In this document: positions 1 to 60,701 of the stretch, piece after piece
How positions within the stretch are numbered: the first letter of the stretch is position 1
Layout of the letters: every line of letters starts with the position of its first letter
NCBI GenBank assembly: GCA_037447655.1
Contig: JBBHKE010002686.1
Span: 43,316-107,315, forward strand
Source of the DNA: Zygnema cylindricum
Taxonomy: Eukaryota > Streptophyta > Zygnematophyceae > Zygnematales > Zygnemataceae
DNA length: 64,000 bases
Reading direction: 5' to 3'
Notes under the pieces: generated by a model
Told to the model about the DNA's origin: nothing
Database searches by the model: none
The model's input: the letters and a program-made list of their open reading frames with translations, nothing else
Position numbers and translations under genes: made by a program

Positions 1-341
1 CAGAGGACGAGACAGAGGAATGGACGTACTCTGTCGGTACCGACCGACGTTCAGTAATCACTGATGCTGTTCATACTTCCGACGACCTTCTGGTAATTTC
101 TTCTTTCTGATTTTTTATGGAAAAAGTTGTTATGAGAAATGTAAGACCTGTTAAGCCACTTAAACAATTCGCAAGGTGTTTAGGTTTTCTCACCACCTTC
201 AAATGAACGCTCTCTACTAGTTAGATAGCTCTAAACCTTATTCTTCCCCTTACATTAACCTCTTCCTCAACACTGCCTACGCTTAGTATCAGCCGAGAAT
301 ACCTCCTCCGGCTTTAGATTTCAAGGGTGGCTCCCTTAAAG
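1..341. repeat. Mirror (reversed, non-complemented) copy of 459-799
   Basis: Every base i from 1 to 341 equals base 800-i. I checked this line by line over the whole arm and found no mismatch. The copied stretch (459-799) is ordinary sequence: element B coding (read on minus) followed by the first 130 bases of the 5' LTR of element A. Read forwards, 1-341 matches nothing else in the window. Symmetry stops abruptly at 342/458, and the 117 bases between are normal element B coding. Replication and recombination make direct or reverse-complement repeats, not reversals, so I infer an assembly or file artefact. Any coding or LTR call inside 1-341 should be ignored. Confidence 0.95.
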
Positions 342-669
342 AGGTCCAAACCCCTCACCGAAGAATGACGAATCATCTTCTTCAAACTTACCTCGGATGT
401 ATGACACATTCGATGATGCCATAAGGTAAGATAACCTTTCAACTCCGAAATTTGGTGTGAAATTCCCTCGGTGGGAACTTTAGATTTCGGCCTCCTCCAT
501 AAGAGCCGACTATGATTCGCATCCGTCACAACTCCTTCTCCAATTACATTCCCCTTCTTATTCCAAATCTCGATAGATTGATCATCTCTCGCAAGTAAAC
601 TTCCACCACTCTTTTGGATTTGTGGAACGCTTAACAAATTCACCGAATTGTCCAGAATGTAAAGAGTAT
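342..669 (-). CDS. Element B pol, GAG-pre-integrase segment (partial)
   Basis: Continuation of the B polyprotein beyond the A insertion. The minus-strand frame reads LYILDNSVNLLSVPQIQK and then the GAG-pre-integrase signature LWHHRMCHTSEVSLKKMI, the start of the histidine half of the integrase HHCC zinc site. Element F has the close match LWHHRMCHTSKENLKRMI. The frame runs on into the mirrored block and stops shortly after (near 314), but residues coded left of 342 are not genuine. Joining across A restores phase: the last residues before A are TEYRLQNT and the frame continues with LYIL after the duplicated AGTAT. Confidence 0.8.
665..669. repeat. Target-site duplication of element A (left), AGTAT
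   Basis: AGTAT lies directly before the TG of the 5' LTR and is repeated at 6975-6979 directly after the CA of the 3' LTR. Five bases is the usual length for copia integrases. Confidence 0.9.
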
Positions 670-1634
670 TGTTGAAAAAGGTATTTTTTAGTCTTTCTTC
701 TTTAATGGTCTTCCAGCAGCCTTCATACTTGTCGTAGTCACTAATGACTTGCAGCCAGCCATGGCTGTCTCATGCAGGTAAGGAGACAGAGCAGGAGACA
801 GAGCACAAACTTTAAATTCATGTAAAACTTATGCAGTCCCTAGTAAGACTTGAACCTGGGACCTCTGGATATAGGCCGTACGGCGTAGCCGTTACCCTTA
901 TCCACTAGGTCCTAACGAAACGATATACATATTTGGTTTGGTATTAATTTATAATGTGACACGTCGGCATACTTCACTTAAACATATTACGAGACGAAAC
1001 AAACATGAAACGTGCCAGACCGCACGAAATAAAGTACCGCACGAAACGACATCAAATTTCAACGCACAAAATTGAAAGTCGTTCGCGATCGACGGCTTGC
1101 AGAGGAGCCGGAATTCCGGAATGTTTTTTGGCGGTTTGCTGAGCATATGTCGGCGGGTGACACGTGGCGAAGAATGATTGGACAATGGATATCACGGAGG
1201 GAGCAGCTTCGGTTTAGGAACTGACACGTGTCAGCAGAGCGGCCATGCCGTACTATGGCCGTACAAGAAGTACAGCGGTACCCGTACCTTCTTGTACCTT
1301 ACAGTCATTTGATTGAATAGGTACACTAGTAGTAGGCTTGAAGAGGTAGTTTAGGACTTAGAATATTTTTTTGAATTCAGCCTCTCTCCCAGAGTGCTTC
1401 TGTATTTATGGACCAACTTTGGTCAGCCATAACTTAATGCTCAGGTGAGCAAATTCTGTGATTCTTTTTGCAGCAGACTCACGGGAGTCCAGGCTACACA
1501 AGGGTGTAGTTGGTCAGAGTTTTTGCGTCCCATGGTGGGACTTATTCACTATCAAAGTCAAAAGTGCATATATTATCCTAGAGGCTTCATATAAGCTGGA
1601 CATTCTGTGTACCAATGAAGGTCACAGAATTACA
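670..1634 (+). repeat. 5' LTR of element A
   Basis: Begins TGTTGAAAAAGG and ends ACAGAATTACA. Landmarks: a tRNA-like block (848-913), a hairpin GTACAAGAAG...CTTCTTGTAC followed by an inverted CCAAT box (about 1262-1315), two small hairpins (1476-1509), and an ATG at 1614 that opens the Gag frame. It is 9 bp longer than the 3' LTR because of an extra TATTTATGG near 1402. I count five substitutions in the first 130 bases against the 3' LTR. Confidence 0.93.
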
Positions 1635-2575
1635 GGTTATGGGCCCACCTTCTAGGGTGCCCATTTTCAATGGAACAGGGTTCATTTTTTGGGAAACTAT
1701 GATGAGGGGTGCATTTTTTGAAAAAAGGCTTTGGGGCATTGTGAGTGGTCGTGTGCGTTAGCCATCCGCAAAATTGGAAGTTCCACCAGTGTTTGGAGGA
1801 TCTCGGTTCACAGGAGGATCTACGGGGGTAGAGGTGGTAGAGGATGTTGGAGAACGCATCGTGTCAGACATAAGGAAGGAGAAAGGGAATGAGAAACTCA
1901 CACCGATGCCTACAGGATCGGTTCCGATAGTAGATGTTAAGAAAATGGAGGCTAATGATAGTGAAATCTAGGATTTCAACAATACTGTGGCGACAAACTT
2001 TATTCTCGGGCGTCTCACCCAGGCAGTGGCTACACCTCATCTTCATGTTGACAAGGCAAACGAGTTGTGGGAGGCTCTTGTCAACATTTACAAGAGTGGT
2101 ACAATTCAGCAGCAGAAGTTGGCAGATCAGAAGGTACAAGCATATGTATACAAAGGGGGAAAGATGTTAGATTTTTGTAATGACTTGGCTGGGTTATTTA
2201 TGGAGTTGGAGATTGCAGGGAAAAGGGAGACCGAGAAGGAGAAGGTGAATACTGTTGAGAAAGTAATCCTAAGTTAGTTCAGAAGATAGTGCATTAAAGG
2301 GAGAGAGCGCAGTGGCGTAATGGAGAAGCGCAGTGCAGAAGTGCAAAGTGGAATAACTTTCTTGTTAAATGTTTAAATCTGGTTCGGGAAAGCACAATTG
2401 AGATTCGAAGAGGAGGAAAGAGTGTTCAGGCATTGGCTGCTGGCACTAACTGGGAAGGTAAGGATTCCAAGCAACCTTATGGGAACTTTGGTGGAGGAAG
2501 AAGAGTAACCATGACGGGTCTGGATCTAGGGCTCCGAAGTGGCTTTGCCATTTTTGTAAGAAGCCGGGACACTAC
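1614..2575 (+). pseudogene. Element A gag remnant
   Basis: The frame opens in the LTR (MKVTELQVMGPP) and runs through the primer-binding site into SRVPIFNGTGFIFWE, matching the N-terminus of element D Gag. A TAG near 1759 breaks it. Later pieces correspond to Gag mid-sections: TPHLHVDKANELWEALVNIY at about 2032-2092 and YKGGKMLDFCNDLAGLFME at about 2150-2205. A CCHC zinc knuckle, CHFCKKPGHYMAEC, is at about 2546-2588. Between about 2270 and 2390 alignment to D is lost. Confidence 0.8.
1635..1649 (+). other. Primer-binding site, half-initiator-tRNA type (element A)
   Basis: GGTTATGGGCCCACC follows the LTR with no spacer. GGTTATGGGCCCA is complementary to the anticodon arm of eukaryotic initiator methionine tRNA (TGGGCCCATAACC), the internal primer known from Drosophila copia and yeast Ty5. 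It is not the tRNA 3' end used by most plant copia elements. Confidence 0.75.
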
Positions 2576-3415
2576 ATGGCAGAGTGCACTAAGTTGACGG
2601 AGCTGAGATTGAAGGAGGAATCGATTGGAAAACCAGCCGGAAAGAAAAAGAAGGCGTTCGTTGCAACAGAAGTCGTGGGAGAGGATAGCGATGATGACGA
2701 TGGAGAACTTCTCCTCAACGAGGAGTTGGAGGTGAAAGGTGAGCCTGAGATTCCAAAGAGGCAAAAGTGTGCCTTCGGTGGAGTGAAAGAAGCTCCTGAA
2801 GAAGGATGGATCATTGATTCAGGAGCCTCTATGCATATGTGTAGAGAAAAACCATTGTTTACCAAAATGAGAAAGATCCCTACTGTAGAGATAGAGTATG
2901 GGGATGGGAGAATAGTCACCACTAATTCAGTGGGATCAGTAGATCTGAAGGTCATAGTTGATGGAAAGACATCTATAGTCACTTTCTGTGATGTTCTTTT
3001 TATTCCGGAGCTGAACAAAAATCTTATCTCTACGTCGGTCTTAGATGATAAGGGTTTTGAGACTAGTACTAAGAAAGGAGTCTTTGTTGCTAGCTATGAG
3101 AATGAAGTGTACTTCACAGCTGAAATGTGTAGCCAAGGAATGTTTAGGCTAAATTTGAGTAATGGAAAGACGGGAGTTTACTATGCTGGTGTAAGTGATT
3201 TGATGATGTGGCATAAAAGATTGGGACATGTGCATCTAGATAGGTTGAAGAAAATGAAGAAAACGGGTGTAGTTGAGGGCATACATTTTGGAGATAATGA
3301 GACTTTGGATGATTGTAGTGGGTGTGCTCAAGGAAAGGCCCACAAATTGCCTTTTCCAAAAGCCGCAACATATAAGGGTAAAAAGGTTTTAGATTTGGTT
3401 CACACTGACATATAG
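2576..3415 (+). pseudogene. Element A protease and integrase N-terminus
   Basis: An open stretch of 279 codons. It starts within the zinc knuckle region (MAECTKLTELRLKEE), then an acidic linker, the aspartic protease active site WIIDSGASMHMC (about 2806-2845), and the integrase zinc site MMWHKRLGHVH...CSGCAQGK. It ends at a TAG (3413-3415) that replaces the conserved Trp of HTDIWGPA. The next frame resumes immediately, so a single substitution appears to separate the two halves. Confidence 0.85.
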
Positions 3416-5146
3416 GGACCGGCCAAAGTGCCATCAGTTGGAGGGAAAAGATTTATGCTTACTATCACTGATGATTGGTCTAGATACTCTCGAGTATATT
3501 TCTTGAAAAACAAATCTGAGGCTTCGGCAAATTTTAAGGAATATAAATCATGGAGTGAAAAGCTTCATGAGACACCTATAAAGAGAATAAGAAGTGATAA
3601 TGGGGGGGAATTCACTTCTAATGAGTTCGAGGATTACTTGAAAGAGGAAGGGGTTCAACACCAAAAGACAGTCCCAAAGAACCCGGAACAAAATGGTGTA
3701 GCCGAGAGACTAAATCGGACATTAAGTGATAGTGCCCGTAGCATGTTGACGGATAAAAAGATAAGGAAAAGTTTTTGGGCAGAAGCTATGAATTGTGCTA
3801 ACTATCTCAAAAATAGAGTCCTTACCTCAGCTGTAAAAGGTCAAACACCTTATGAAAGATGGACCGGGAGAAAACCTAACATATCACACTTAAAGGTGTT
3901 TGGAAGTCAAGTGTTCAGTTTAAACACAGAAAAATCTGATTGGAAGTTAGACGCTAGAGGAAAGCCGGGATACTTACTTGGGTATGATGAGAACGTAAAA
4001 GGGTATAGAGTTTATGATCTCGGAAAAGAAGACATAATTCTAGTGAAACACTTGGTAGTTATGGACGAAGGAAAATCCATAGATCCCTTTAAGTACACTA
4101 CACCGGTCAGAATTAGATTTGAATCCGAAAGTGAATTAGATTCAGATTCTACTAACCGAACTCCGGTTCAGCCTGACTTTGCAGAGGAAGAGGAAAAACT
4201 GACCGAGAGTGATCCTCACTTGGAGTCACAACATCCGGTTCAAACCGAGGAAGAAAATGAAGAAAAACTGGAAATGGACGATGAACGTCCGGAGATGGAC
4301 TTCACGGATAGGGGAGAAGGCGAAGTTGTTTGGAGAAACCCGAGATTGCCCTCCATTCCAGCATCAGAGTTTGAAGGAGGAAGGAGAAGCAGCAAGAGAC
4401 TTCAAGAGAGACAAGTGAACAACAAGGTAACTAAGCTGTCACATTTGAGTGAACCTCAGACTTACTCGGATGCAGTTAATAGTCAGGAAGGTGGTAGATG
4501 GGTGACAGCTATTAATGATGAGATGGCTTCCATTATGGAAGCAAACACTTGGGAGTTGGTGGATTGTCCTCCGGATAGAAAACCAATAGGACGCAAGTGG
4601 GTATTTGAGTTGAAGCTCAATCCTGATAACACTATAGAGCGATACAAGGCCAGATTAGTGGCAAAGGGGTTCACACAGAAGGAGGGAATCGATTATGAGG
4701 AGACCTTTGCTCCGGTTGTTAGATTCCCCTCCGTCCGGATTTTACTTAGTCTCGCGGCAGCGGAAGACATGGAAGTGCACCAAATGGACATCAAAATTGC
4801 TTTCTTACATAGAGAATTGGAAGAAGAGATTTTCATGAGACAACAGGAAGGATTTGTGGAGAAAGGAGAAGAAAGCAAGGTATGTAGATTGATAAAGTTC
4901 CTTTATGGACTAAAGCAAGCTCCACGCCAATGGAACAAAAAGTTGGACGAGTTCTTGACAAATTTGGGATATATCCGAATCAGTTCGGATCATTCGATCT
5001 ACTTATTTGAGGATGAGGAAGGTATAATTTTTATTGCCATATATGTTGACGATTTGCTTGTGTTAAGTAAATCAATGGTGAAAATTAATAAATTGAAAAA
5101 GGATCTAAAGAGTAGATTTATTGGGAATTCAAATGGAGAGGGATAG
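3416..5146 (+). pseudogene. Element A integrase core and reverse transcriptase
   Basis: Open for over 570 codons after the TAG. Integrase core: TITDDWSRYSRVYFLKNKSE, then IRSDNGGEFTS (second catalytic Asp) and EQNGVAERLNRTL (catalytic Glu). After an acidic linker, RT begins near 4540 with YKARLVAKGFTQKEGIDYEE, MDIKIAFLHREL and the polymerase box IYVDDLLVL (about 5041-5067). It frameshifts just after RFIGNS, where about 35 bp present in element D is missing. Confidence 0.87.
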
Positions 5147-6005
5147 AGAAAAGAAGATAATTAGACTAACTCAAAAGGAAGCAATTGGGAATATGTTGGA
5201 AAAATTTCAAATGGGTAAAGCAAATAGTTGTACAACTCCAATGGACTTAAAGAAGGGAAGTGAGGGGAGCTCAGAAGAGGGAATCTTGATCTTAGATAAT
5301 GAGTTAGGACTTGAGGAAAGTAAGTTCATGCAAACTATTCCGTACACATAGGTTGTCGGTAGTTTGATCTATTTTATGAATTGTACTCGTCCAGATATAG
5401 CACCAGCTGTGGGGGTATTAAGTCGACGTCTGAATGATCCTAGAAAGAAAGATTGGGAAGCGGCCAAAAGGGTCATGCGGTACTTGATAGGGACAAGAGA
5501 TCTATGGTTGCATTTGGGAGGGGATAATACTGACATCACCACTTGGAGTGATGCCAGTTATGGGGATGCTCGGATGAGGAGGTGTACTTCTGGGTATGTG
5601 TTATATGTTGGGAATGGAGCTTGTTGTTGGAGCAACAAGCAACAAAAGGTGATTGCTCAATCTACCATGGAGGCTGAGTATGTGGCCTCTTGTTCGGCTG
5701 TGAAAGAGTTAATGTGGGTGAAATCTTTGCTTCAAGAATTGGGATATATGAAGAATGGAGTGCAAAAAATATTTTGTGACAATCAAGCTGCGATTGCAAT
5801 TTCAACAAACCCTAAACACCACTTTAAAGCAAAGCATATGGATATTCGTTTGAGCTTTGTTAGAGAAAACGTTGAGAATAAAATAATTAGCTTGGAATAT
5901 AGACCAGATGGAGAGATGGTAGCAGATATGATGACAAAACCGGTTCCTTCTCCCAAATTGATATTTTGTAGGGAGAAATGTGGGCTAAAGCAAAAACTAG
6001 ACTAG
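5121..6005 (+). pseudogene. Element A RT C-terminus and RNase H
   Basis: Two consecutive open pieces. 5121-5351 (MERDREKKIIRLTQKEAIGN) ends at a TAG. 5364-6005 carries MNCTRPDIAPAVGVLSRRLN and RNase H with its catalytic residues in TTWSDASYGDA, STMEAEYVASC and CDNQAAIAIS. The C-terminal stop at 6003 is followed at once by the polypurine tract. Confidence 0.85.
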
Positions 6006-6018
6006 AAAATAAGGGGAG

Positions 6019-6974
6019 TGTTGAAAAAGGTATTTTTTAGTCTTTCTTCTTTAATGGTCTTCCAGCCGCCTTCATACTTCTCGTAGTCACTAATGACTTG
6101 CAGCCTGCCATGGCTGTCTCATGCAAGTAAGGAGACAGAGCAGGAGACAGAGCAGAAACTTTAAATTCATGTAAAACTTATGCAGTCCCTAGTAAGACTT
6201 GAACCTGGGACCTCTGGATATAGGCCGTACGGCATAGCCGTTACCCTTATCCACTAGGTCCTAACGAAACGATATACATATTTGGTTTGGTATTAATTTA
6301 TAATGTGACACGTCGGCATACTTCACTTAAATATATTACGAGACGAAACAAACATGAAACGTGCCAGACCGCACGAAATAAAGTACCGCACGAAACGACA
6401 TCAAATTTCGACGGACGAAATTGAAAGTGGTTCGCGATCGACGGCTTGCGGAGGAGCCGGAATTCCGGAATGTTTTTTGGCGGTTTGCTGAGCATATGTC
6501 GGCGGGTGACACGTGGCGAAGAATGATTGGACAACGGATATCACGGAGGGAGCAGCTTCGGTTCAGGAACTGACACGCGTCAGCGGAGCGGCCATGCCGT
6601 ACTGTGGCCGTACAAGAAGTACAGCGGTACCCGTACCTTCTTGTACCTTACAGTCATTTGATTGGATAGGTACACTAGTAGTAGGCTTAGAGAGGTAGTT
6701 TAGGACTTAGAATATTTTTTTGAATTCAGCCTCTCTCCCAGAGTGCTTCTGACCAACTTTGGTCAGCCATAACTTAATGCTCAGGTGAGCAAATTCTGTG
6801 ATTCTTTTTGCACCGGACTTAGGGGAGTCCAAGCTACACAGGGGTGTAGTCGGTCAGAGCTTTTGCGTCCCAGGGTGGGACTTATTCATTGTCAAAGTCA
6901 AAAGTGCATATATTATCCTAGAGGCTTCACATAAGTTGGAGATTCTGTGTACCAATGGAGGTCACAGAATTACA
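6019..6974 (+). repeat. 3' LTR of element A
   Basis: 956 bp, TG...CA, same landmarks as the 5' copy. It lacks the 9-bp TATTTATGG. Flanked by the polypurine tract on the left and the AGTAT target duplication (6975-6979) on the right. Confidence 0.93.
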
Positions 6975-6979
6975 AGTAT

Positions 6980-8543
6980 TTTGAAGACGATACTCCGTCG
7001 ATCTCTCTTTCCCATCATTATCCCATGAAAGAAGATCAAGCCGAACTGTGCCAACCGTACCAACCGAAATGACATGGCCGTTTGCTACCGTGATAAACTT
7101 TGGAACCGTAAGTTCCCTCATGTCATCAAACAAGGTGGCATCCGTGCAAACATGGTGAGATGCCCCCGTATCAATGATCCACTCTTTCTCTAAATTTCCT
7201 TCACTACTCACCGAATCAAGTGTAAGGTTAAGAACCGGAAAAACATCACCGGTTTCATTACCATAGTCGAAGTAATTTGCATTACCATAACCTCGACCAC
7301 CACCATGGTCTCCTCCTCGACCGCCACCTCGGCCACCTCTATCACCTCCTCTACTTCCTCTTCCACCTCCGGAATCTCGACTCTTCGAATAACATTGAGA
7401 GATCGTATGTCCCCACTTACCACAAAAATGACATTGCTTGTCCTTATCCGGACAAGATGAAGACAAATGTCCAAGCCGGTTACACCGGTAGCATGTCACA
7501 TTGGAAAGATCCGAAGGGACCTTCGGTGGACGACCTTGCTCCCTCTTGTTGCCTCGGCCGCCACCACCACCTCTCAAGCCACCTCCTCTACCACCGGCAT
7601 AGTTAAGATCCGGGGTTTCGGGAGTAGTTGAGTTAAGAACTCTTCCTCCTCCACTTGAAGAAGCCGATGGAGTTCCCTCCGACATTTTGATAAAATTAAC
7701 GGTGAATCGGAAAGTGTTATCCGCCTTCCCTCGTAAAATAGCTTTAAGATGCGAAAGCTTCTCCGGCAAAGCGTTAAGAAAAACGCTTAATTTATCCGCA
7801 TCCAAAATAACTCGACCATTGTTGATTAATTGCTCGAGTATAATATTGAAGCGCTTCACGTCATCATCCATCAATTCATTTGACTTGATTTTAAAATTCA
7901 TAAAGTCCGTATAAACATATTGACCCTTGTTCTCAACGCCTTTCTCATATTGCTCCTCAAGTGCTCGCCAACACTCATGGGCCATACCGTGAGCAAGGAA
8001 ATGATCAAGCACGGAAGAAGTGCAATTCTTCATCAAACCGGTCGTTGCCGCAATATCGTTCAATCTCCATTGAGCACGTGCCTTGCTCTCCGTTGGCATC
8101 TTCTCTTCTCCGTTGACAATCCTCCAAAGCCTCTTGAGAATAAGTTGATTTGAATTTAATTTCTTCCAAACCGCATAATTGGTGCCATTAAAGGCCACGG
8201 ATTTCCCCGACATATTATAATCATCTTCGTTATCCAATGCCTCTTCAAAATCTGAATTTTCCTCTATCTTTGCTTTACCTTTCCTAATTCTCTCTTTTAT
8301 TTCACTCTCATTAGCTCGTCCACTGAATGGATCAGCAGCCTGAAATGAAGCAAATTCTCTTTTCTCACTAGATTGAGTTTGAAACCGTGAATCTACATAT
8401 CTCGTTAATGTATCAAACATCTCCTCAAATTTTCTCTCCGTATTCCGAGTCTCCTCAAATTGGGAACCCGAAAAACTAAACTCTCTTGCTCTCTCCGAAG
8501 TCGACATGGGGGAAGGAGTATTTTTGTTCTTCTTCCTCCCCAT
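6980..8543 (-). CDS. Element B gag-protease polyprotein (5' part)
   Basis: A continuous minus-strand frame, roughly 520 codons from the ATG at 8543 (MGRKKNKNTPSP). Gag core: FNGTNYAVWKKLNSNQLIL and SSVLDHFLAHGMAHECWRAL. Two CCHC knuckles follow, CYRCNRLGHLSSSC and CHFCGKWGHTISQC, then a Gly/Arg-rich stretch (RGGGRGG repeats) and the protease motif EWIIDTGASHHVC (DTG active site). The first in-frame ATG after the primer-binding site was chosen as start. The frame ends because element A was inserted and it resumes on the other side of A. Confidence 0.85.
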
Positions 8544-8570
8544 GCGCTCTCTCTCTATCTCCAAAGCACT

Positions 8571-8585
8571 AGCTTTGATACCAAT
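8571..8585 (-). other. Primer-binding site of element B (3'-end initiator tRNA type)
   Basis: Read on minus: ATTGGTATCAAAGCT, directly after the LTR. This matches the common plant copia site TGGTATCAGAGC (complement of the initiator methionine tRNA 3' end) with one mismatch. Confidence 0.8.
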
Positions 8586-9232
8586 TGTAGGATCTTAAGC
8601 AAAAGAGTTTCACTTAAAATAATTCACAAAACATAAATCATTACACAGCGGAAGCTCATAAAAGACAAGAGGAATATTCAGCCAAAAAGATTTATAAGTG
8701 TTCTTGGCCGAAGCCTCTTTACAACATGTCTCTTCTCTCTTCTCTCTCTTCACTCTTCTCTTTAAACAATCTCTACTCCTATATAAATCCTCTATGATTA
8801 ATTGGTTGATTAATTAATAATCTGCACATGTACACTGTTTTCTATATATACTCGCTACTCTACACTAAAAGATAACAAGATAAGACAAGCAGAACTTAGC
8901 GTAGCGACGAAGTCTGTCCCTAGCTGACTGTGCACTCTTTAATGAAAGTTCCACGAAGGAAGGCGCACACGCTTCTTCCTTCGAAACAACAAACTCCAAA
9001 CGTTGACTTCACACGTGTCACTTCACGAACACACCTGCACGCAAAATGTAACACTTGCGCATGAAACAAACAAGTGACGCGAAACGAAATAGTATGTTTC
9101 GTTCGCGAACATCAAAAGCACCGTCGCGAAACAACGTCGTACTTTTGTATGATGACGCGACAGTTCGCGTCAAACAAATTTAAGTTGGAATGACGCTTCG
9201 CGAAATCTCGCGAAAACGACAATATCCCAACA
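8586..9232 (-). repeat. 5' LTR of element B
   Basis: On minus it starts TGTTGGGATATTG at 9232 and ends CCTACA at 8586, next to the primer-binding site. About 647 bp. The 5' boundary is inferred from TG...CA ends; the second LTR needed to confirm it is outside the window. GATGA at 9233-9237 would be the target duplication. Confidence 0.7.
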
Positions 9233-37456: not shown

Positions 37457-39816
37457 TTAAACTCGTAACCCGTACATTTCAAATGTATCGAACAATGTGT
37501 CATTTTCCTCCATTCCCATCAGTAAATCTAACTTCTTTCCTCCTAAATATCCCGGATTGTCGTTCATAACTCGTCCCGGTAAATAAAGTTCTCTCAAATC
37601 TCCCACAATGGTATCCCTAAAGTTACTTCTTTTATGGCCAGTTTCAATCCTCCACTCATCCGGAAGTTTCTTTTCACCTTTTCTCTTCAATACTCCATAT
37701 AACCAATGAATTATTACCATCCGGGCAACCTCTAAAGGAAAATCTCTCACCTTTAAAACCCAAAGAACCGAACCCGTGAACTCGTGATGAAAATTAACTC
37801 CCGAGGCGATCGCTTCTTTGAAAAGATTTAATGCGACTTTTTTCGAACCGAGGGTTAATATCACATTTATTGCCTCGATCGCAATATCCACCGTCACTTT
37901 ATTATCTCTTGTGATTGTACATCGCTGTTTTAAAAACGAAATCCAAGAGTGAGTCCGGTTACGAAACTCGACTTTATGAACTTTACCAACTTCCTCGTCT
38001 TCTCCAAATTTCAGCATCCATCTCAAAAGATCTCCCGTATGGACATCGACACACTCTACAATTTTTAAACAGTCTTCGATTTCAGATGCTCCTCGACGCA
38101 TTTTCCCAAGCTCTTCCAAAAGTAATAAAACCGTTCGTTTATCCGGTTTATACCCATTATCTCTGAATTTGATAAACGCCTCCAGGCATTGTGAATATCG
38201 AACTCCGACGAGAAATTGTTGCATCGCACAATTCATGATCGAAGTTTTACGATTAGAATCCTCGAGAATTACTTTTTCCACAATTTTCATTACATCATCG
38301 AATTTCCCTTGTTGAGCCGCAAAACACAATCGTTCCATGCAAGTGAGAACAAACGAAGAATCGTCTCCCAATTCTTCTATTTCGCGAAAAATTCCCTCCC
38401 ACTTCTCACTCTCTCCCGCTAATCTATAAGCTCGCGCCATATGAAGATAAATTGTAATGTCGGGCTCCAAGAGTTCCTCTCTCATAACGTTAAAAGTTTT
38501 TTCCATCCTCTTTAAATCTCCCGCCTGTCCTAAAGATCCGATCATAATTCCATAAGTAAAAGAATCCGGATGCATATTTTTAAGTCTCATTCGACTTACG
38601 ACGTGAAACATATCGACAATACGTCCCGCATCTCCATATCCCTTTATAAGAGTATGCCACATACTCATAGAAATCTCATCTTCCTTTATCGCTTTTTGAA
38701 CAATATCTTCCGCGAGGACAAAATACTTGTGACTACACATACTTCGAACGAGAGGAGTGTAATGAAATTTCGAAAATGGAATCCCCGTTGCTTTCATATA
38801 ATTGTAGACTGTGTGAACTATTTTGACTTGTTTTGCGTCGGCTAATATTCCCAAAATGATGCTGCAAGTTTTTTCCGATGGCCGTAAATTAGGGTTTTCG
38901 CAAGTTTGCATCCATTTGAAAACCTGTAAACCACCGAGTAAAACAAAATCTGGTCAATAACAAACATGACAAACTCGACTTTCACAGTTTTTCAAGGGTT
39001 TTCTGAGTCTATTTTTTTGGTTTTTTTAAGATCTTTTCAGATTTCGATCGAAGTTTCTGGGACAAAAGATAATAATATTCGCTTTTCCTTTTTGCCTTTT
39101 CACATTTGTTTAGTGTATTAAATTCCATTCACTACGCCAAAACTTGCAAAACTCAAAACAAGTAACGAAGAAAAGAAAATATCAGAAAAGAAAAAAAAGC
39201 AAAGAAAACACCCTTATCCCCACATGAATGTCCAAAACAACGAGAAAACGTGAAGTTCTGACAAAATCAGGAAACACACAAAACTCTCAAAAACAATAAA
39301 AAAAAAGTAAAAAAGAAAAATCGAAAACGAAAAAAAAGTCCAAAAAAGTACAAAAAAGATGGTGAAATAAACAGTAATTGTCCTTACCCAATGAGCGGTT
39401 CGCCATGCCCGACTAGTTCCCAAATTCATAAGAACAGTTTCTAAGTCTTTTTGCTCCAAATATGGACCGGCGTCCGAGAGAGCCGCAACACATCCGGCCG
39501 AAGACTGTGATTGAATGAGCCTCGAAAAAAGTTTACGCTTCCATTTACTATTCTGTCTCTCCATCTCTCTCTCCCCCTCTCTCTCCCTCTCTCTCACTCC
39601 CTCTCTCACCTCCCCTTTGAATCTCACCATCTCTCTCTCTTGCTCTCCCTCATATGGCATACTTTCATAGCCATAGGAAAAGTCAGGAAAGGTCGAAGTT
39701 GAAAAAGGTCGAGAAAGAGGGAGAAGTTTAGGAATTTCTGAGACGAAAGGTAGGAAGGATGAAGGGAGAGGGGAGGGGGGAGGGGAGGGGGGAGGGGGAA
39801 AGAAAGCAGGCGGCAT
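37457..39816 (-). CDS. PPR-SMR-like protein, two exons
   Basis: Exons 39816-39388 and 38923-37457 joined by a GT-AG intron (donor TGG|GTAAGG, acceptor TTTACAG|GTT, phase 0); about 631 aa. The N-terminus is Pro/Ser-rich and low in acidic residues, compatible with an organelle transit peptide. PPR-type helical repeats run from about residue 160 to 340, for example WHTLIKGYGDAGRIVDMF and FTYGIMIGSLGQAGDLKRM. The C-terminus (about 525-610) resembles an SMR domain: EVARMVIIHWLYGVL, then WRIETGHKRSN and NPGYL. The usual SMR LDxH motif is not clear. Such proteins generally bind organellar RNA. The ATG at 39816 is a judgement: the frame stays open upstream through a CT-rich repeat to about 40086. Confidence 0.78.
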
Positions 39817-43830: not shown

Positions 43831-44054
43831 AGGTTAAAACGTAAAAACGGGAAATAAAACGGAATTACGGAAACGAAGGACTGTACGGTCAACAGCTTGC
43901 CGAGTTTTGTCGTGAAGTGAAGCTGGTGACGGTCGACTGTTCGGTCAATTTTTTTTTTTCGTCTTTTGAGACCGTGACGTCACTTTGCATGCAGTATGAC
44001 GTCACGCTGTGAGAGCGACCGACGAGCGTGGATGAGTGGGGAACTGTACGGAAC

Positions 44055-44249
44055 TGCGGAGGGAGGAGAGGGAGAGTAGAGAGAGGGAGAAGAGGGGAAA
44101 AAGAGGGGAAGGGGTCAGAGTAGAGAGTAGAGAGGAGAGAAAAGAGGGGAGAGAGGAGAGAGAAGAGAGTACAGAGGAGAGAGGAGAGAGGTAAGAGGAG
44201 AGAGGAGGGAGGAGAGAGGGAGAGAGAAGGGAGGGAGAGAGAAGGGAGG
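44055..44249. repeat. GA-rich array ending at an assembly gap
   Basis: GGAGAGAGG and GAGAGAAGG units, purines on plus, running into the Ns. Confidence 0.9.
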
Positions 44250-44259
44250 NNNNNNNNNN
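44250..44259. other. Assembly gap (10 N)
   Basis: Ten consecutive Ns at the end of the GA-rich array. The true length is unknown. Confidence 1.
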
Positions 44260-44589
44260 CAAAACAAAACAAACTCCTAAGAACAACCATAGATAAGAAC
44301 ATTGGTCCTTGAGAGTTTAACTTTGCTTACAATAAATCAATGTGATAAAGATCAGTTCGTTTACACGGCCCAAACAATGTAAATGTACTCCTAGTCAACT
44401 ATGACAACTTCATATAAAGGAACAAGACTTTAATCGCTTAATTAGTGTGGAGAGTAAAGTGGATATAAATGTATATGTAATCTTCATGTCATGTGGCGGT
44501 TAGCGATAATCGCAGCACATGCGATTAGGGCAGATTGGGAATTTGGAAATTTTGGAAGAAATCGATTACTCTATTTAGGAATTAGGGCT

Positions 44590-44692
44590 TTTTTTAAATA
44601 GTGTGGATAATTATATTTGAGAATAAAAACAAAAAAAAGCGGGACGGGATTAGCGTACACGACGCTAATAGCGATTGGCGGTGTACTGTACT
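44590..44692. mobile_element. Terminal part of a second 43026-type element
   Basis: GCGGGACGGGATTAGCGTAC, then ACGCTAATAGCGATTGGCGG, matches the reverse complement of the left end at 43026. Its other end is not identified. Confidence 0.6.
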
Positions 44693-44699
44693 TCTAATG

Positions 44700-45270
44700 T
44701 ATATGTAAATATAGGTGAAATGAGAGGTGTGATTAATTCGCTAATTTCAGAACAAGGAAATATACTTCAACAGTATCAACTGATCCTCATGTAAATGTAA
44801 CAAACCCGGCACATTTGCTTGACTAGAAATAGTGTAACTAAATAACATTCGTTTCAATTTGAGAGTTCCTGGTTACAAGAATAGATACCAACAAGAATCC
44901 TCAAACAAAACAAAACAAAAACGGGGAAAAAAAGGGGTCACACAAACCAATTCATTTGCAAACGAGCATATATCGCAAATTCACCAAAAAAAAATAAAAA
45001 ATGAATACGACAAACTCAACTTGGGACCTTTCACCTAAACTCAGAATGGGTATGCATATAAGACAAAAACATAACTCGACAAACGACAAGAAAAACACAC
45101 AACGAAAAATACTTTCAATTCACTTTGATTTCACACGCAATCCACAATGAAATCATCTCATTTTTTAAACCTTCTCGTACTTCTTTATTTCTTATCTTGA
45201 GGTTCTCTCTTTTTAAATCATCTCAATTTTTAAACCATCTCGTACTTCTTTATCTCTTATCTTGAGGTTC
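44700..45270. other. Region downstream of the TOUGH-like gene
   Basis: AT-rich, presumably its 3' UTR and flank. It contains an imperfect tandem repeat of about 60 bp (CTTATCTTGAGGTTCTCTCT at 45192 and again at 45257); the second unit overlaps the last coding exon. Confidence 0.5.
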
Positions 45271-45276
45271 TCTCTT

Positions 45277-45309
45277 TCATTCAGATTTCTTCTTGTACTT
45301 GTGACGGTC
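45277..45309 (-). CDS. TGH: TGH-like last coding exon
   Basis: Codes [10 protein letters not shown] and stop TGA. Acceptor TTCAGCAG. Joined in phase 0 to the donor GAG|GTAAGG at 45543. Supported by the basic C-terminus typical of the family. Confidence 0.75.
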   Translation of the reverse strand, partial: DRHKYKKKSE

Positions 45310-48300: not shown

Positions 48301-51300
48301 CAAATTAAAAAGTATTAATCATCCTAATTTTGTTCAGTTTAGACCAAATAGTGTCAGTGAATTTGATTAATACAGAACAAGGCTCAAATGTGGATTGAAA
48401 CTGGAATTGGAAAATCATCCCACATTAATGTGGACCAAAATTATCGTAAACATGAAAAACAAAGTTGTTAACAACGCCACACTAATTTTTGTGAATGCTT
48501 TTCCGTGGATCAACATGGTTGACACATTTGCGAACTGGGGCAACAAAAGCCACACTAAATTTGAAGTGTATCTAGAAAAGCAAAAGTGAAGATGAAAGGG
48601 ATTTCTTCCAGCCGATAAACTTTTTCAATTTTAGAATATACGGACTTCGTAGAGTGGGTTTTTGAATATATTATAAATACAGACCCTGCCAAAGTGTCCC
48701 CGAATGCTATAATTGTTACAAGTGGATAAAATAGTACAAGATGGGCAGGCCCCTTTAGACTGGAATTTTTTAAATTCTACAAATAAATAAACAATTTTAT
48801 TCACTCGCAAAGTTAACACTGTTAAACATGAACACAAAATAATAAAAAGTTAGCCTATCCACCTCAGCTGGTTCCATAATAACCTGTTTTCTAAAGGTTA
48901 TTTTTCAAAAGATTTTAACTACTGTTTTATCACACAAGTTGTCAGCACGATTAAAAAGTTTATTACCTGAATAGAAATTCCTTCTGACCCTCCTGAAGTG
49001 AATCGACTTCCCATAATTGCTGCGAGTTCTCCTAATCTATCTCCCCAAAAACCCAACACACCCATCAGAATAGAAAAAACTAACTTATAAACTTACTTAT
49101 TAAAAAAATGATTGAGATTGCCTTTCCAAACTACTTGTTTGATAATCTAAAGACCCCAGAAAGAAGGTATATTACAATAAGTAAAAAATTAAGACAAATA
49201 ACGTAATTGACCTTTGAAGCCCTGAATCTTTTCTACTTTTCCTGTCTACGCTAAATATTACTGATCAGATTTTTCAATTTTTCGAATTCAACAGCCTAAA
49301 AGTTTTAAAATTTGCCCGACAAATAGGTCTCTAACCTTGTTTGTTTTGCAAGAGGATCCTCCTTGACGAGTCCTATGCCTGTAAAATTGTTCATATCCTG
49401 CAGAACAAAAAAACAAATCCAGAATAAATACAGAACAAAAGGGCATTAATGTAAAATAGCAGTGACAATGTTACAAGCACAACAGAAAAAAACATAAAAG
49501 ATAAAAAGCAAAAAGCATAAGGTAAAAAGCGACGCAAAATAGCAACAAACATGAAAACCAAACACAAAACAAACACAAAAAACAAAACCAAAAATAAAAA
49601 CAAAAACAAGGTAACAACGATAACACCAACGACATTGTTGGATAAAAAAACACGACAAACAGCAATAATAGAAACAACAATGACAACACCAGCAAGAACA
49701 CTAAACACCAAACATAACTTATTTTCACCTGTTGCTTTCCTCTCTCAAACTGGCTCGATAATTCGGCCTGGAGCCTCGTCTTATCCTCCATTCCAATTCC
49801 AGACTTTTGAAACTTGTCAGAAACCTCTTCCTTTCGGAGAGGTCTCTCTCCCAAAATTTCTCCTCTCCTTTCAGAATCTAATTTCTCATCGCGGTTTCTC
49901 TTTCTACTTCCTCCGTCCTCCCTCCCTTCTCCTCCTTGACTATTAAAAGCAATTCCTTGTTCTTTCTGTTGTTTCTCTCTGAGCTCCCAAAGTTTGCGGT
50001 TATAATACTCGATCCCAGGTCCTCCAAAAAGGAAACTAAATAAAGGATTGTCAAGGTTCTTTTCACGGACTAAATCTTCAAATTTTTGACCTCCTCGAGC
50101 TACAAAAGTTGCTAAACCCTCAATTGCAGAACGGAGACTGGGGTCAGTTACAGGAGGAACTTTGTCAGGAATAGGTCTAGAAAGAAACTTTCCATAAGAG
50201 TCCAAAACAATACTTGCAAAGCGATGATTTGGTAGAAAATCTTGTGGAATTACAGGAGGTGGAAACCTGCAAAGATGCAAATATGCATGTCAAAATAATG
50301 TGGTAATCTTAAACCCATTATCTGCTACTAACTTCTACCAAAATTACAAAGATTAGACTATACTATTGTCATCGACTATTATATGCAATAGTATAGCACT
50401 AGAATACATACATTATATATATGAATGCAAAATGGAATATGATAAAATCGGCAATTTTCCTCATCTTCAAGCACAAATTATCCCCATATGTCAGGAGGTG
50501 GTCTATAATATTATTATTGCATTCAATGTACCATGGTATTTTTCATCTAATTTATATTTACGGGATTTAAATATTCAACATAGTACTAACCAAAATCGTA
50601 TGCAACGGCTCCTAGCACCATTCCTTCCTTTGAACCCAATAGAAACGTAAAATCTTTGGAACGTTTCGCAAATAGTGACCAGCCTTGGGTGATTAAAAGT
50701 CATTTAATAAGACATGAGAGACAAAAAAGGAGGGGGAGAGGGAGGGGGAGGAGAGAGGGAGGGGGAGGAAGAGAAAGAGGAGGGAGAGGGAGAGGGAGAG
50801 GAAAGCGAAAAGAAGCACGGTATGTATCAAAAACCGAAAAAGCAGCGAAATACACCGAAGGATTCCCTTCTTTTTCGGACGACGAGCGACAAAGGAGAGG
50901 GAGATAGTGTGCTACACCCCCTCTAAATAACGAGACCGTAGTCCGGAGGGAGGGACACTCATACCATGCTTTGATTTGTTGGACTTGTCTGCTAAGGCTA
51001 CCTACCTTCAATAAGAGCATCAACAAAAATGGATCGATACTTTTATACAAAAGTGGGTCGGCTTGACAGTCGCTATTCTTCTGCATATGGCGATACCACA
51101 GCATAACAAAGCCAAAAGTAGTGCTACCAGTTTGGTCCCGTGATTCCGCTACTTATGTATGGTTTGCAAAGCTTAGCTTTACAAAGCGATAGTGAACTTA
51201 GGTGCTTGCGAATGTTATTTACTACCGCCAGAAGAGTGCAGTGGCAGTAGAGGGAGAGGGAGAGGGAGAGGGAGAAAGAGAGGAAGAAGGAGAGCCCTAC

Positions 51301-54300
51301 TAACCACTTCATGTCATCCTCAGCCATCGATCCGGGCTTGAAACCGGGCAATGACTGGCTCGCTAATCTCTTCACTTGAAATGGCTGGGAAGTCTGAGAC
51401 TGGAGGAGAAACTTATTTGCCCTTTTCTTACCATCCAAAGGTGCCTCATCTTCATCCGAAGCAACCATGGCAGTTGGCACGTCTGCAGAAGTAGAAATAT
51501 ATGAGTTACTATTAGTACAGATCTTGTGAAAGTTCAAGAATAAGTGCATTTAGGCGAGAGTGAGAGCGGTGTGGGAGTGAGAGTGCAAGAGTCAGAGACT
51601 GAGTGTAAGAATGAGAGACAGAGTAAGAGCGCAAGAGTTAGAGACTGAGTGAGAGTGCGAAAGTGAGAGTGCAAGAGTTAGAGATTGAGCGTGCAAAGTT
51701 AGAGACACTGTAAAAGTGAGAGACAGAGTGAGAGTGCGAGAGTGAGAGTGCATGAGTTAGAGAGAGTGAGGGTGCAAGTGCAAGTTAAGGTGAGGCAAAC
51801 GGCGAAGCAAAAACAGAAGCAGAAAGACAGAATTGGAAGAAAACTAGTACACTAAGCATGAATATCGATAGAAAATAAACAAATGACTTTAGAATGTAAG
51901 CAAAAGTGTTACAAGTCTCACTTATGCATAGGTTGCAAGCAGTTATACACCTACGGAAGGCGTTACCAGTAGCTTAGCCATGAATATGACCATGACCATG
52001 AAAATATATTTAAAAACTTCTCAAACAACAGTAAAAACAAAAGTTTAAACTGAATAAGGGACAGAGTGATCTTAACAATTATTTGTTCATTTCTCCAATC
52101 ATTTCAGTTCTATTCAATTATTACATCCACTATTGGATTCTAAAATACTCACTTTCCAAGAAAAATGGTTCATTAAAAAACACTCTTGAACTGCTAGAAG
52201 CTAAGAAAAAAATGCACTTTCAAATTAAAAAAAAAAAACTAAAAGAAAAAAAAATATACCAATCACGAAAAAATCAAAAAAAGGTAAGAAAATCTTCGAA
52301 TTGACACTGAGAGGGTATAAATAAACTAACCTTGAGCATAAATGTCCTCGTCTTCTTCCCCTACCTCCTCCAAAGAACCAATTCCAAATCCCATTGCCAT
52401 AGTTCCAGCTCTCGGTCTAAAGAGACTCCCTTTACCCACATTTGAATTCCTTGCAAAAGAAAGTTCCTCTGACTTATTTACATTACGACGTGCCTCTGAA
52501 AAAAATACAAAATTGGTCTAATCAGTAAAAAAAATTACTTTAAAACAGATGAATAACCAGGTTTTTAAATGCAGAAAAAGCAACTATAGAATCCATTTTG
52601 AGAAAACAAGAAACTTAGAAACAACTACAGCTATGACCTCAACCGTGTCAGTTAAATCACACCTCCCCAAAAAACGTCATCAAAAATAGGTCCTACATGG
52701 TCAAAAACTGTTTATAGCACCAAAAAAAAAATATTACAATTCATTTTAAAACACAACACTTAAGCCTAACGTTTGATTTCCGCAAAACTGCAACTAGAAA
52801 TCAAGTAACAACGATCTTTATCGAATTTCAGATGACAAAAAATTAGAAAATCAATATATGCAGTGCCAGTATTCAATCAGAATTTGAAAGCAAAATCGAA
52901 ATTGAAGCTAAAAAAAAAAAACTGGAACTTCACCAAATAGAAAAGATTTGACCTGCAAACTCAGGAGCGTGCTTATATGGGTCAAATCCGAGCCCGTAAA
53001 AATCTGTCTTTGGGCGAATTACAATAACCGGTATAGTGGAAGGGCCTTCCTCCTCTTCATCCTCTTCCTCCTTCAATAGACCTTCTCCTCCTCCTCCCTC
53101 TTCAAAAACATCTTCACTCAGCTTAACATTTTGCAGAGGCTTCATTTCAGGTGGCAATTCTACAGTATACACTTTCCTTTTAGCCTTCTGCGACCTCTCT
53201 CCTTCCTCCTCTTTATCCTTTCCGGAAAGTACGTCATTTCCAGAGGTAGAGAGAGCAATCATCGCTTTCCGAGCCTCCCTCAGAACCTTCCCGGAAGCTG
53301 CCTCATTGGCAGGTCCCATTGACCTTCCCGGACGCCAACCCATTTTCCGAAGCAGCTTTACGCCTGAAATAAAAACCAAAAGATATTTTTACAGAAATTG
53401 TTTGGGATTTGATTTAATCACAAAATCTCACTCCTGAACAAGTCCCTTGTCTTGTTCAATCTATTTAAAAAAGTGGGACAAGTTAGATATCAGATCAGAC
53501 CAATGATCCACATGATTTGCACAAAGTGTCGAGGGAATCGAAACATGAGATATAAAGTCCAGTGAAGAATTTGACATTTTTGAATTTCAACTGATTGAAA
53601 ATTTCAGAACCTGCCACAACCTTTCTTCTCCCAGGACTGAAGTGTCATGGCATCGTTATATACGGCCCAATACCACAATTAGAATGGATTAAGCATTTAA
53701 GCTTAGGCCGACTATGCCACCCTCTCCTGAATGGAAATAGTTCAAAAAAAGGTAATACTCACCAAGATGTTGTACTACGGGAAGAATTATCTCATCCGGA
53801 GCCGACCCAGGAATAGCCCTTTCTCCTCCAAAAGCTTCCTTTTGAGTTTCGTTTTGAGCTTGTTTTTGAGCTAGAGCACTTGCAGTTGAACCAAAAGTGT
53901 CCAAATTTTCAGCAGTGGTTAAAGCATTTGCATCGACGTCAGCTTTTTCGTCTTCATCCATAAAGTCGTATGCTGACTGTGCCTTTTGTTCAGCTCTGTT
54001 GGTTCGAGTCGACACAAAGGTTGACGGAGTCCATCCTGACAAAGGAAAATAAGACAAAATGGAACAAATAAGGGACACTCCACTATAAATAATTGAATGG
54101 ATAGAACACTTTGTCAAAGGAGTTCTGCATAACTCTCGCCATTCCTCCCCCTCCTCTTTTTTGAATTTGCTCTCTCACATTCCCACTCATTCTCCCTCTC
54201 CCTCACTCCCTCTCTCCGTTCCTTCCACGGACCTTCGACCGGGTGAACCAGAAATGACCTGAAGCCTTAGTTTAAATGTACCGAGGACATGGTCTACAAC

Positions 54301-59531: not shown

Positions 59532-60701
59532 AAGGAGTGGGTAATCGATTCCGGTACGCTGCACCACGTGTGCACTGACGCTACTTTATTTTTGGATATG
59601 CGCCAACTCACAAGTCCGAAACGCATATTTGTGGCAAGTGGCCACGTGATTCACATTGGTACGGTTGGAACAATACCGCTTCATTTTATTACGTACGACC
59701 CTGACGGCGTGGAAAAATTCAACGAAACAAAATTGACGGACGTTTTATATATGCCTGAAGATTCAACAAACTTATTGTCGGTACCTCAGATTCAACGAAC
59801 CGGCTGCAGTGTAATTCCGCACGGCGACGGCACTATACAAATTATGACAAAAAATTGAGTCGTCGTTGGAGGAGTTTTTACATACACACTCCACAGCACC
59901 TTATTTTGGCGGCGGCCACCAATGGACTCACTTATTAGTGGCGTATCGAGTCCAACGCCGATTCACAAGGAGGACTTGAGCTTGTGGCATCATCGGATGT
60001 GCCACACATCGAAGGAAAATTTAAAGAGGATGATCAAGACATCATGTGTTCGCAGTCTTGATCTTACATCCGGGGAAAAGATAAATGGATGCAAGGGGTG
60101 CAGTCAAGGACGACAAATCCGAAAGCCGCATCCGGCCAAAGACATAAATTATCGATTGAAGTATCCGTTGGAGCTCGTGCATATCGATTTATGTGGACAT
60201 ATAACTCCGGCAAGCATTGGAGGAAATCGATATGTCATGGTAATTATTGATGATTTTTTTCGCTTTTCTTGGGTTTATCTTCTCAAGAAAAAGTCTGATG
60301 CCTTTGGAAAATTCAAGGAATGGAATATTATGGTCGAAAGACAATCCGATCGGAAATTAACATCGGTGCGATCGGATAATGGCGGAGAATTTGTGATTTT
60401 TGAGAATTATTGTAAGGAGTGGGGAATTAGGCAACAATCTACGGCTTTGTACTCTCCCGAATCTAAAGGTATAGCCGAAAGTAAAAACCGAACATTACAA
60501 AAAATGGTTCGTGCTATGGTATACTCTTCGGGCAACAAAATCTTCTTAGGGGGAGATGCGATTTTAACCGCCAACTATATTTGCAATCGTCGTCTTACCT
60601 CAATTTCCGAGGAGAAGACACCTTATGAGCTTTGCGATTGGACAAAAACTGACCATTCATCATCTCCGTATTTGGGGATGTCGTGCTACGGTCTACATTG
60701 A
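59532..60701 (+). pseudogene. Element F protease and integrase
   Basis: Protease KEWVIDSGTLHHVCTDA (DSG active site) follows the TAA directly. Then MPEDSTNLLSVPQIQRTG, LWHHRMCHTSKENLKRMI, CKGCSQG and the integrase core with HIDLCGH, VRSDNGGEFV and PESKGIAESKNRTLQ. Stops occur at 59856-59858 and 60699. Confidence 0.85.

What the first reader, a model, noticed from the sequence alone, without database searches (positions are those of the whole stretch)
1..799. Perfect 341-base mirror repeat (reversed, not complemented)
Base i equals base 800-i for i = 1-341 without exception, then symmetry stops abruptly with a 117-base normal stretch in the middle. A reversal without complementation cannot come from templated synthesis or recombination on antiparallel strands. 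The copied part spans both element B coding and the LTR of element A, so it was made after the A insertion or in silico. Most likely an assembly or file artefact; if physically real it would need an unknown mechanism.
Basis: seen in the sequence. Interest (0 to 1): 0.9.

Follow-up and report, generated by a model that had tools for sequence, protein, structure and literature searches.

The report
Backwards-written patch at assembly gaps
The perfect mirror is an assembly error, in which a piece of real sequence was pasted backwards at the edge of a gap; the same error turned up at other gaps of this genome, so it says nothing about biology but is worth screening for.

Summary
In detail: base i equals base 800-i for i = 1-341, with no mismatch. 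It is not biology. (1) Window base 1 is C2018:43316, the first base after a run of 1,970 N. (2) The window holds a second perfect mirror, 44260-44533 = reverse of 44643-44916, which starts at the first base after the window's only N run, 10 N. (3) Five of five fetched copies of the interrupted retroelement match 342 onward and carry ordinary sequence left of 342, where the window has the mirror. (4) Searching the genome with the second reversed arm gave 12 matches outside the window, in 11 loci; 11 of 11 carry a mirror of their own at an N run. Of all 13 mirrors, 12 lie right of the gap and 12 are flush with the N run. In three loci even the 'loop' is backwards, so the patch came from reads or a local assembly, not from copying the finished contig. 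Best explanation: a gap-filling step wrote sequence recruited near one gap edge in reversed, uncomplemented order. The program is not identified. What share of gaps is affected was not measured.

The parts
1..341 (.). Reversed, uncomplemented patch (artefact): letter-order reverse of 459-799; first base after a 1,970-N run
   Evidence: 0 mismatches; N run C2018:41346-43315; within the window, outside itself, matches only after reversal
342..458 (.). Genuine contig start, the unmirrored middle; element B coding on the minus strand
   Evidence: 342 onward is collinear, about 97%, with five fetched copies; junction exactly at 341/342 in 5 of 5
459..799 (.). Genuine arm, source of the patch: element B coding, then the first 130 bases of LTR A
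314..769 (-). Open frame with a gag_pre-integrase match; its last codons and stop (314-341) are mirror sequence
   Evidence: PF13976, E 4.6e-06, 26.8 bits against a cut-off of 28.4; match ends at residue 143, the codon that straddles the junction; 50% identity over 72 aa with the element at 59859, running 3 residues past the junction
665..669 (.). Target-site duplication AGTAT, left of element A
670..1634 (+). 5' LTR of copia-type element A
   Evidence: (800-1400 is 97.3% identical to 6149-6749)
6019..6974 (+). 3' LTR of element A
6975..6979 (.). Target-site duplication AGTAT, right of element A
44250..44259 (.). 10-N assembly gap, the only N run in the window
44260..44533 (.). Second reversed, uncomplemented patch: reverse of 44643-44916, flush with the gap
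44534..44642 (.). Genuine contig start at the second locus (unmirrored middle, normal order)
   Evidence: 44614-44690 collinear with 43100-43025 on the minus strand
44643..44916 (.). Genuine arm, source of the second patch

Best explanation
Assembly artefact. A gap-filling or contig-end-extension step took sequence recruited near the right-hand edge of a scaffold gap and wrote it into the gap in reversed letter order without complementing it. Where the patch came from inside the contig, the result is a perfect mirror separated by the unused contig end (here 117 and 109 bases). Where it also reached beyond the contig end, the middle is backwards too. Shown: mirrors at N runs (12 of 13 flush), recurrence on 12 contigs, bias to one side of the gap, the false junction against other copies, and reversed middles in three loci. 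Inferred: that one program or script with an orientation bug did it, and that it used reads or a local assembly. Which program is unknown.
For: N runs end exactly where both window mirrors begin. 5 of 5 fetched copies of element B run on normally left of 342, and all 7 element-B places among the 40 scored matches match the window only from 342. 11 of 11 other loci found with the reversed arm have their own mirror at an N run. 12 of 13 mirrors lie right of the gap (two-sided binomial p = 0.0034), and 0 of 11 opposite flanks examined carry one. 12 of 13 are flush with the N run. Arm plus middle is 196-458 bases. In L031, L033 and L044 only the reversed middle is collinear with other held copies. 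In 170 kb of unselected gap-free sequence the longest mirror listed was 24 bases, low-complexity matches dropped.
Against: L034's mirror begins 14 bases inside the contig, and L033's lies left of its gap (a later flip of that scaffold would explain it, untested). L030 and L035 have 2 and 1 mismatches between arms, so the patch is not always a copy of the final contig text. L034's opposite flank has a 43-base symmetrical run, in a GA microsatellite, counted as no mirror. L036 and L043 could not be assigned to either form, and the reversed arm plus middle of L032 and of L034 resemble each other at 77-80%, as two artefact copies of one repeat. The 11 other loci were found through a reversed probe, so they test 'mirror implies gap', not 'gap implies mirror'. 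No raw reads were available.
Confidence: 0.97

Rival explanations
1. File-handling artefact: a string reversal by a post-processing script copied the finished contig end onto itself, with no reads involved.
For: Eleven of 13 mirrors are exact, and in eight of 13 loci the middle is in normal order.
Against: In three loci the middle itself is backwards relative to other copies, and two loci have mismatches between arms. A pure self-copy gives neither.
Confidence: 0.1
2. A real mirror duplication in the chromosome, made by an unknown process that copies DNA with parallel polarity.
For: Only the perfect symmetry itself.
Against: All 13 mirrors sit at N runs and 12 lie on one side of them. Five of five fetched copies of element B are normal at the same point. 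In the window, approximate mirrors away from the two loci were only repeats of parts of their arms and a 70% match between low-complexity purine-rich stretches. No known polymerase or recombination route gives reversal without complement (established knowledge, no call).
Confidence: 0.002
3. Fold-back chimera (missed hairpin adapter or template switch) at contig ends.
For: The arm-loop-arm shape at a contig end is what fold-back reads give (recalled; no call).
Against: Fold-backs give reverse complements; here 383 of 399 compared positions fail that test.
Confidence: 0.005

Closest known systems
Gap-edge misassembly in draft scaffolds
   Same: Sits at N-run edges; arms 66-409 bases long
   Different: The usual errors (recalled) are wrong, duplicated or reverse-complemented sequence; here letter order is reversed without complement. 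Seven paper searches listed no title or abstract start that reports this form, but three of them showed only the top of longer lists, and bug trackers were not searchable.
Fold-back (palindromic) chimeric contig ends
   Same: Arm, short middle, arm at a contig end
   Different: Those arms are reverse complements (recalled); these are not
Mirror repeats that form H-DNA (triplex)
   Same: Mirror symmetry in one strand
   Different: H-DNA needs homopurine-homopyrimidine arms (abstract start of PMC13404959, listed); here purine fractions are 0.44 and 0.56 and the longest pure runs are 12 and 7 bases

Membership tests
Assembly gap-edge artefact | Anomalous sequence abuts an N run | tested here: met
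   12 of 13 mirrors flush, 1 of 13 is 14 bases off
Assembly gap-edge artefact | Absent from other copies of the same sequence | tested here: met
   5 of 5 fetched element-B copies normal left of 342; tested at this locus only
Assembly gap-edge artefact | Recurs at unrelated places with the same geometry | tested here: met
   11 other loci on 11 other contigs
Assembly gap-edge artefact | Not supported by raw reads | not testable with these tools
   No reads available
Fold-back chimera | Arms are reverse complements | tested here: not met
   383 of 399 compared positions fail
H-DNA mirror repeat | Homopurine-homopyrimidine arms | tested here: not met
   Longest pure run 12 (arm 1) and 7 (arm 2)

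The most novel reading that the evidence does not exclude
A gap-filling program in general use has an undocumented orientation bug: for the right-hand flank it reverses the fill without complementing it, so non-biological reversed sequence sits at gap edges in other public assemblies too and can be found by a simple mirror scan.
Probability: 0.35. Interest if true: 0.35.

Novelty: not a real feature. Interest (0 to 1): 0.1.

Why it matters
As biology it does not matter. A scan for perfect mirrors next to N runs would find and mask it.

Tried and rejected
Considered and rejected: H-DNA (arms of mixed composition); fold-back chimera (not reverse complement); chance; simple self-copy of the contig end (backwards middles in three loci).

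Led nowhere: naming the organism by protein search. The PPR protein had 3 hits at 21-23% identity; a copia polyprotein had 19 hits at 22-37%, the named ones from Volvox and Closterium (only the 7,994 best candidates were scored). The junction 25-mer had no exact match in genome contigs or viral contigs (the tool says the window's own genome may be left out). I meant to search the genome with the finding's own arm (window:1-341) and with the forward second arm so as to estimate prevalence; these requests did not complete. In 50 kb of C966 I found no N runs and no mirrors. Nine paper searches were made: seven about the artefact or gap closers and two about the organism. I saw listings only: 20 of 60 papers, 0 of 0, 20 of 178, 1 of 1, 10 of 10, 12 of 4,263, 5 of 5, 8 of 458, 1 of 1. 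None of the listed titles or abstract starts reports this artefact; that is not proof that it is unreported. Of papers opened I saw passages only: PMC11096116, PMC10407611, PMC6461651.

Full report
Observation. Base i equals base 800-i for i = 1-341 without a mismatch; symmetry ends at 342, and 383 of the 399 positions compared do not fit reverse complement. In 20 Markov sequences of the same length the longest exact mirror was 16-23 bases. A scan of the whole window found a second perfect mirror that is not in the finding: 44260-44533 is the reverse of 44643-44916, with a 109-base middle. It begins at the first base after the window's only N run, 44250-44259.

Where the window lies. The window is C2018:43316-107315 of a genome held as G000, 352,776,454 bases in 2,689 contigs. 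The bases left of window base 1 are N for 1,970 positions, C2018:41346-43315. Both mirrors of the window therefore start at the first base right of an N run. The tool says withheld stretches also read N, so a long N run need not be a true gap; the 10-N run is in the window itself. A third N run on C2018, 1-6079, has no mirror of 24 bases or more on its right flank (L012).

Which arm is genuine. On the minus strand the right arm and the middle encode part of a copia-type gag-pol (ORF 314-769; gag_pre-integrase PF13976 at E 4.6e-06, below its curated cut-off, the match ending at the codon that straddles the junction). Protein similarity to a related element at 59859-60698 ends three residues past the junction. 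Element A, with LTRs 670-1634 and 6019-6974, sits in element B with a 5-base duplication AGTAT, and the joined flanks read as one open frame. Among the 40 scored matches, seven are element-B copies matching window 342-676 at 97%, and all seven begin at 342. I fetched five of the seven: 5 of 5 carry the same ordinary sequence left of the junction (in the 60 bases compared, one differs at one base), where the window has the mirror; the base next to the junction differs, so no overlap is seen there. At the second locus the end of the middle and the start of the right arm (44614-44690) are collinear with 43100-43025 on the minus strand. So in both, the arm next to the N run is the false one.

Recurrence. 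A search of the genome with the reversed arm 44260-44533 gave 13 matches: the window and 12 others, lying in 11 loci on 11 other contigs. I looked at all 11 (L030-L036, L042-L045). Each carries a mirror of its own at an N run. In 10 of 11 the probe's match lies in the reversed arm (in L034 it starts three bases before it); in L031 it lies in the middle. With the window's two that makes 13. Twelve of 13 are flush with the N run; L034 starts 14 bases in. Twelve of 13 lie right of the gap (p = 0.0034); L033 lies left. The seven loci were checked to be in contig orientation; the other four were fetched by place. Of 11 opposite flanks that could be examined, none holds a mirror of 50 bases or more; the longest run was 43 bases in a GA microsatellite (L034). 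The opposite flanks of L032 and L033 were N to the end of the locus. Arms are 66-409 bases, middles 30-248, arm plus middle 196-458; 11 of 13 have no mismatch, L030 has two and L035 one. These loci were picked with a reversed probe, so they show that mirrors go with gaps, not what share of gaps is hit. In unselected gap-free sequence (L010, L011, L014, L015, L021-L028, L037-L041; 170 kb) the longest mirror listed was 24 bases (the scans used thresholds of 24 and 20 bases and dropped low-complexity matches).

Two forms. Compared with the window and the other loci held, in eight of 13 loci (both window loci, L030, L032, L034, L035, L042, L045) the middle plus genuine arm in normal order is collinear with other copies. 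In three (L031, L033, L044) only the reversed middle plus genuine arm is collinear; L036 and L043 had no relatives to decide. The reversed arm plus middle is collinear only with other artefact loci, where it is at all (L031, L032, L033, L034, L044). In the three, sequence that belongs beyond the contig end appears to have been added backwards together with the overlap. That fits a read or local assembly written in reverse order, and not a copy of the finished contig.

Mechanism. Shown: backwards patches at N runs, one side of the gap strongly preferred, on 12 contigs, and absent from other copies at the one locus where that was tested. Inferred: a gap-filling or extension program that must flip its patch for the right-hand flank reversed the letters but did not complement them. 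The 458-base ceiling and the two middles of exactly 30 bases (L036, L044) may reflect a fragment length and a minimum anchor; that is a guess.

Source. Size, copia content and gap closing would fit Zygnema cf. cylindricum SAG 698-1a_XF: PMC11096116, passages seen, gives 359.8 Mb, N50 213.9 kb, 3,587 scaffolds, Copia 29.8%, WENGAN followed by scaffolding and gap closing with Platanus-allee. The contig count and total differ from G000, so this is a lead only, and I do not claim that Platanus-allee is at fault.

Verdict. The finding is a real feature of the file and not of the organism.

Noticed in passing
44260-44916: Second perfect mirror (274-base arms, 109-base middle) directly after the 10-N gap.
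   Followed up: yes
L031, L033, L044: Mirror loci where the middle is itself reversed relative to other held copies, so gap-filling sequence was probably added backwards.
   Followed up: partly
670-6979: Copia-type element A with 965- and 956-base LTRs and AGTAT duplication, nested in an oppositely oriented element B whose gag part continues at about 6980-8594 on the minus strand.
   Followed up: partly
L012 and L013 (C2018:1-6079): The scaffold begins with 6,079 N and its right flank has no mirror; perhaps withheld sequence.
   Followed up: no
44050-44249: Purine-rich array runs into the 10-N gap and resembles its own mirror, which I put down to low complexity.
   Followed up: no
45150-45277: Two nearly adjacent 63-base copies, 95% identical.
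   Followed up: no
37457-38953 and 49471-54174: A PPR-repeat protein, and pieces with Surp, a sub-threshold G-patch and DUF1604 matches on one strand, perhaps exons of one splicing-factor gene (the gene reading is my inference).
   Followed up: no
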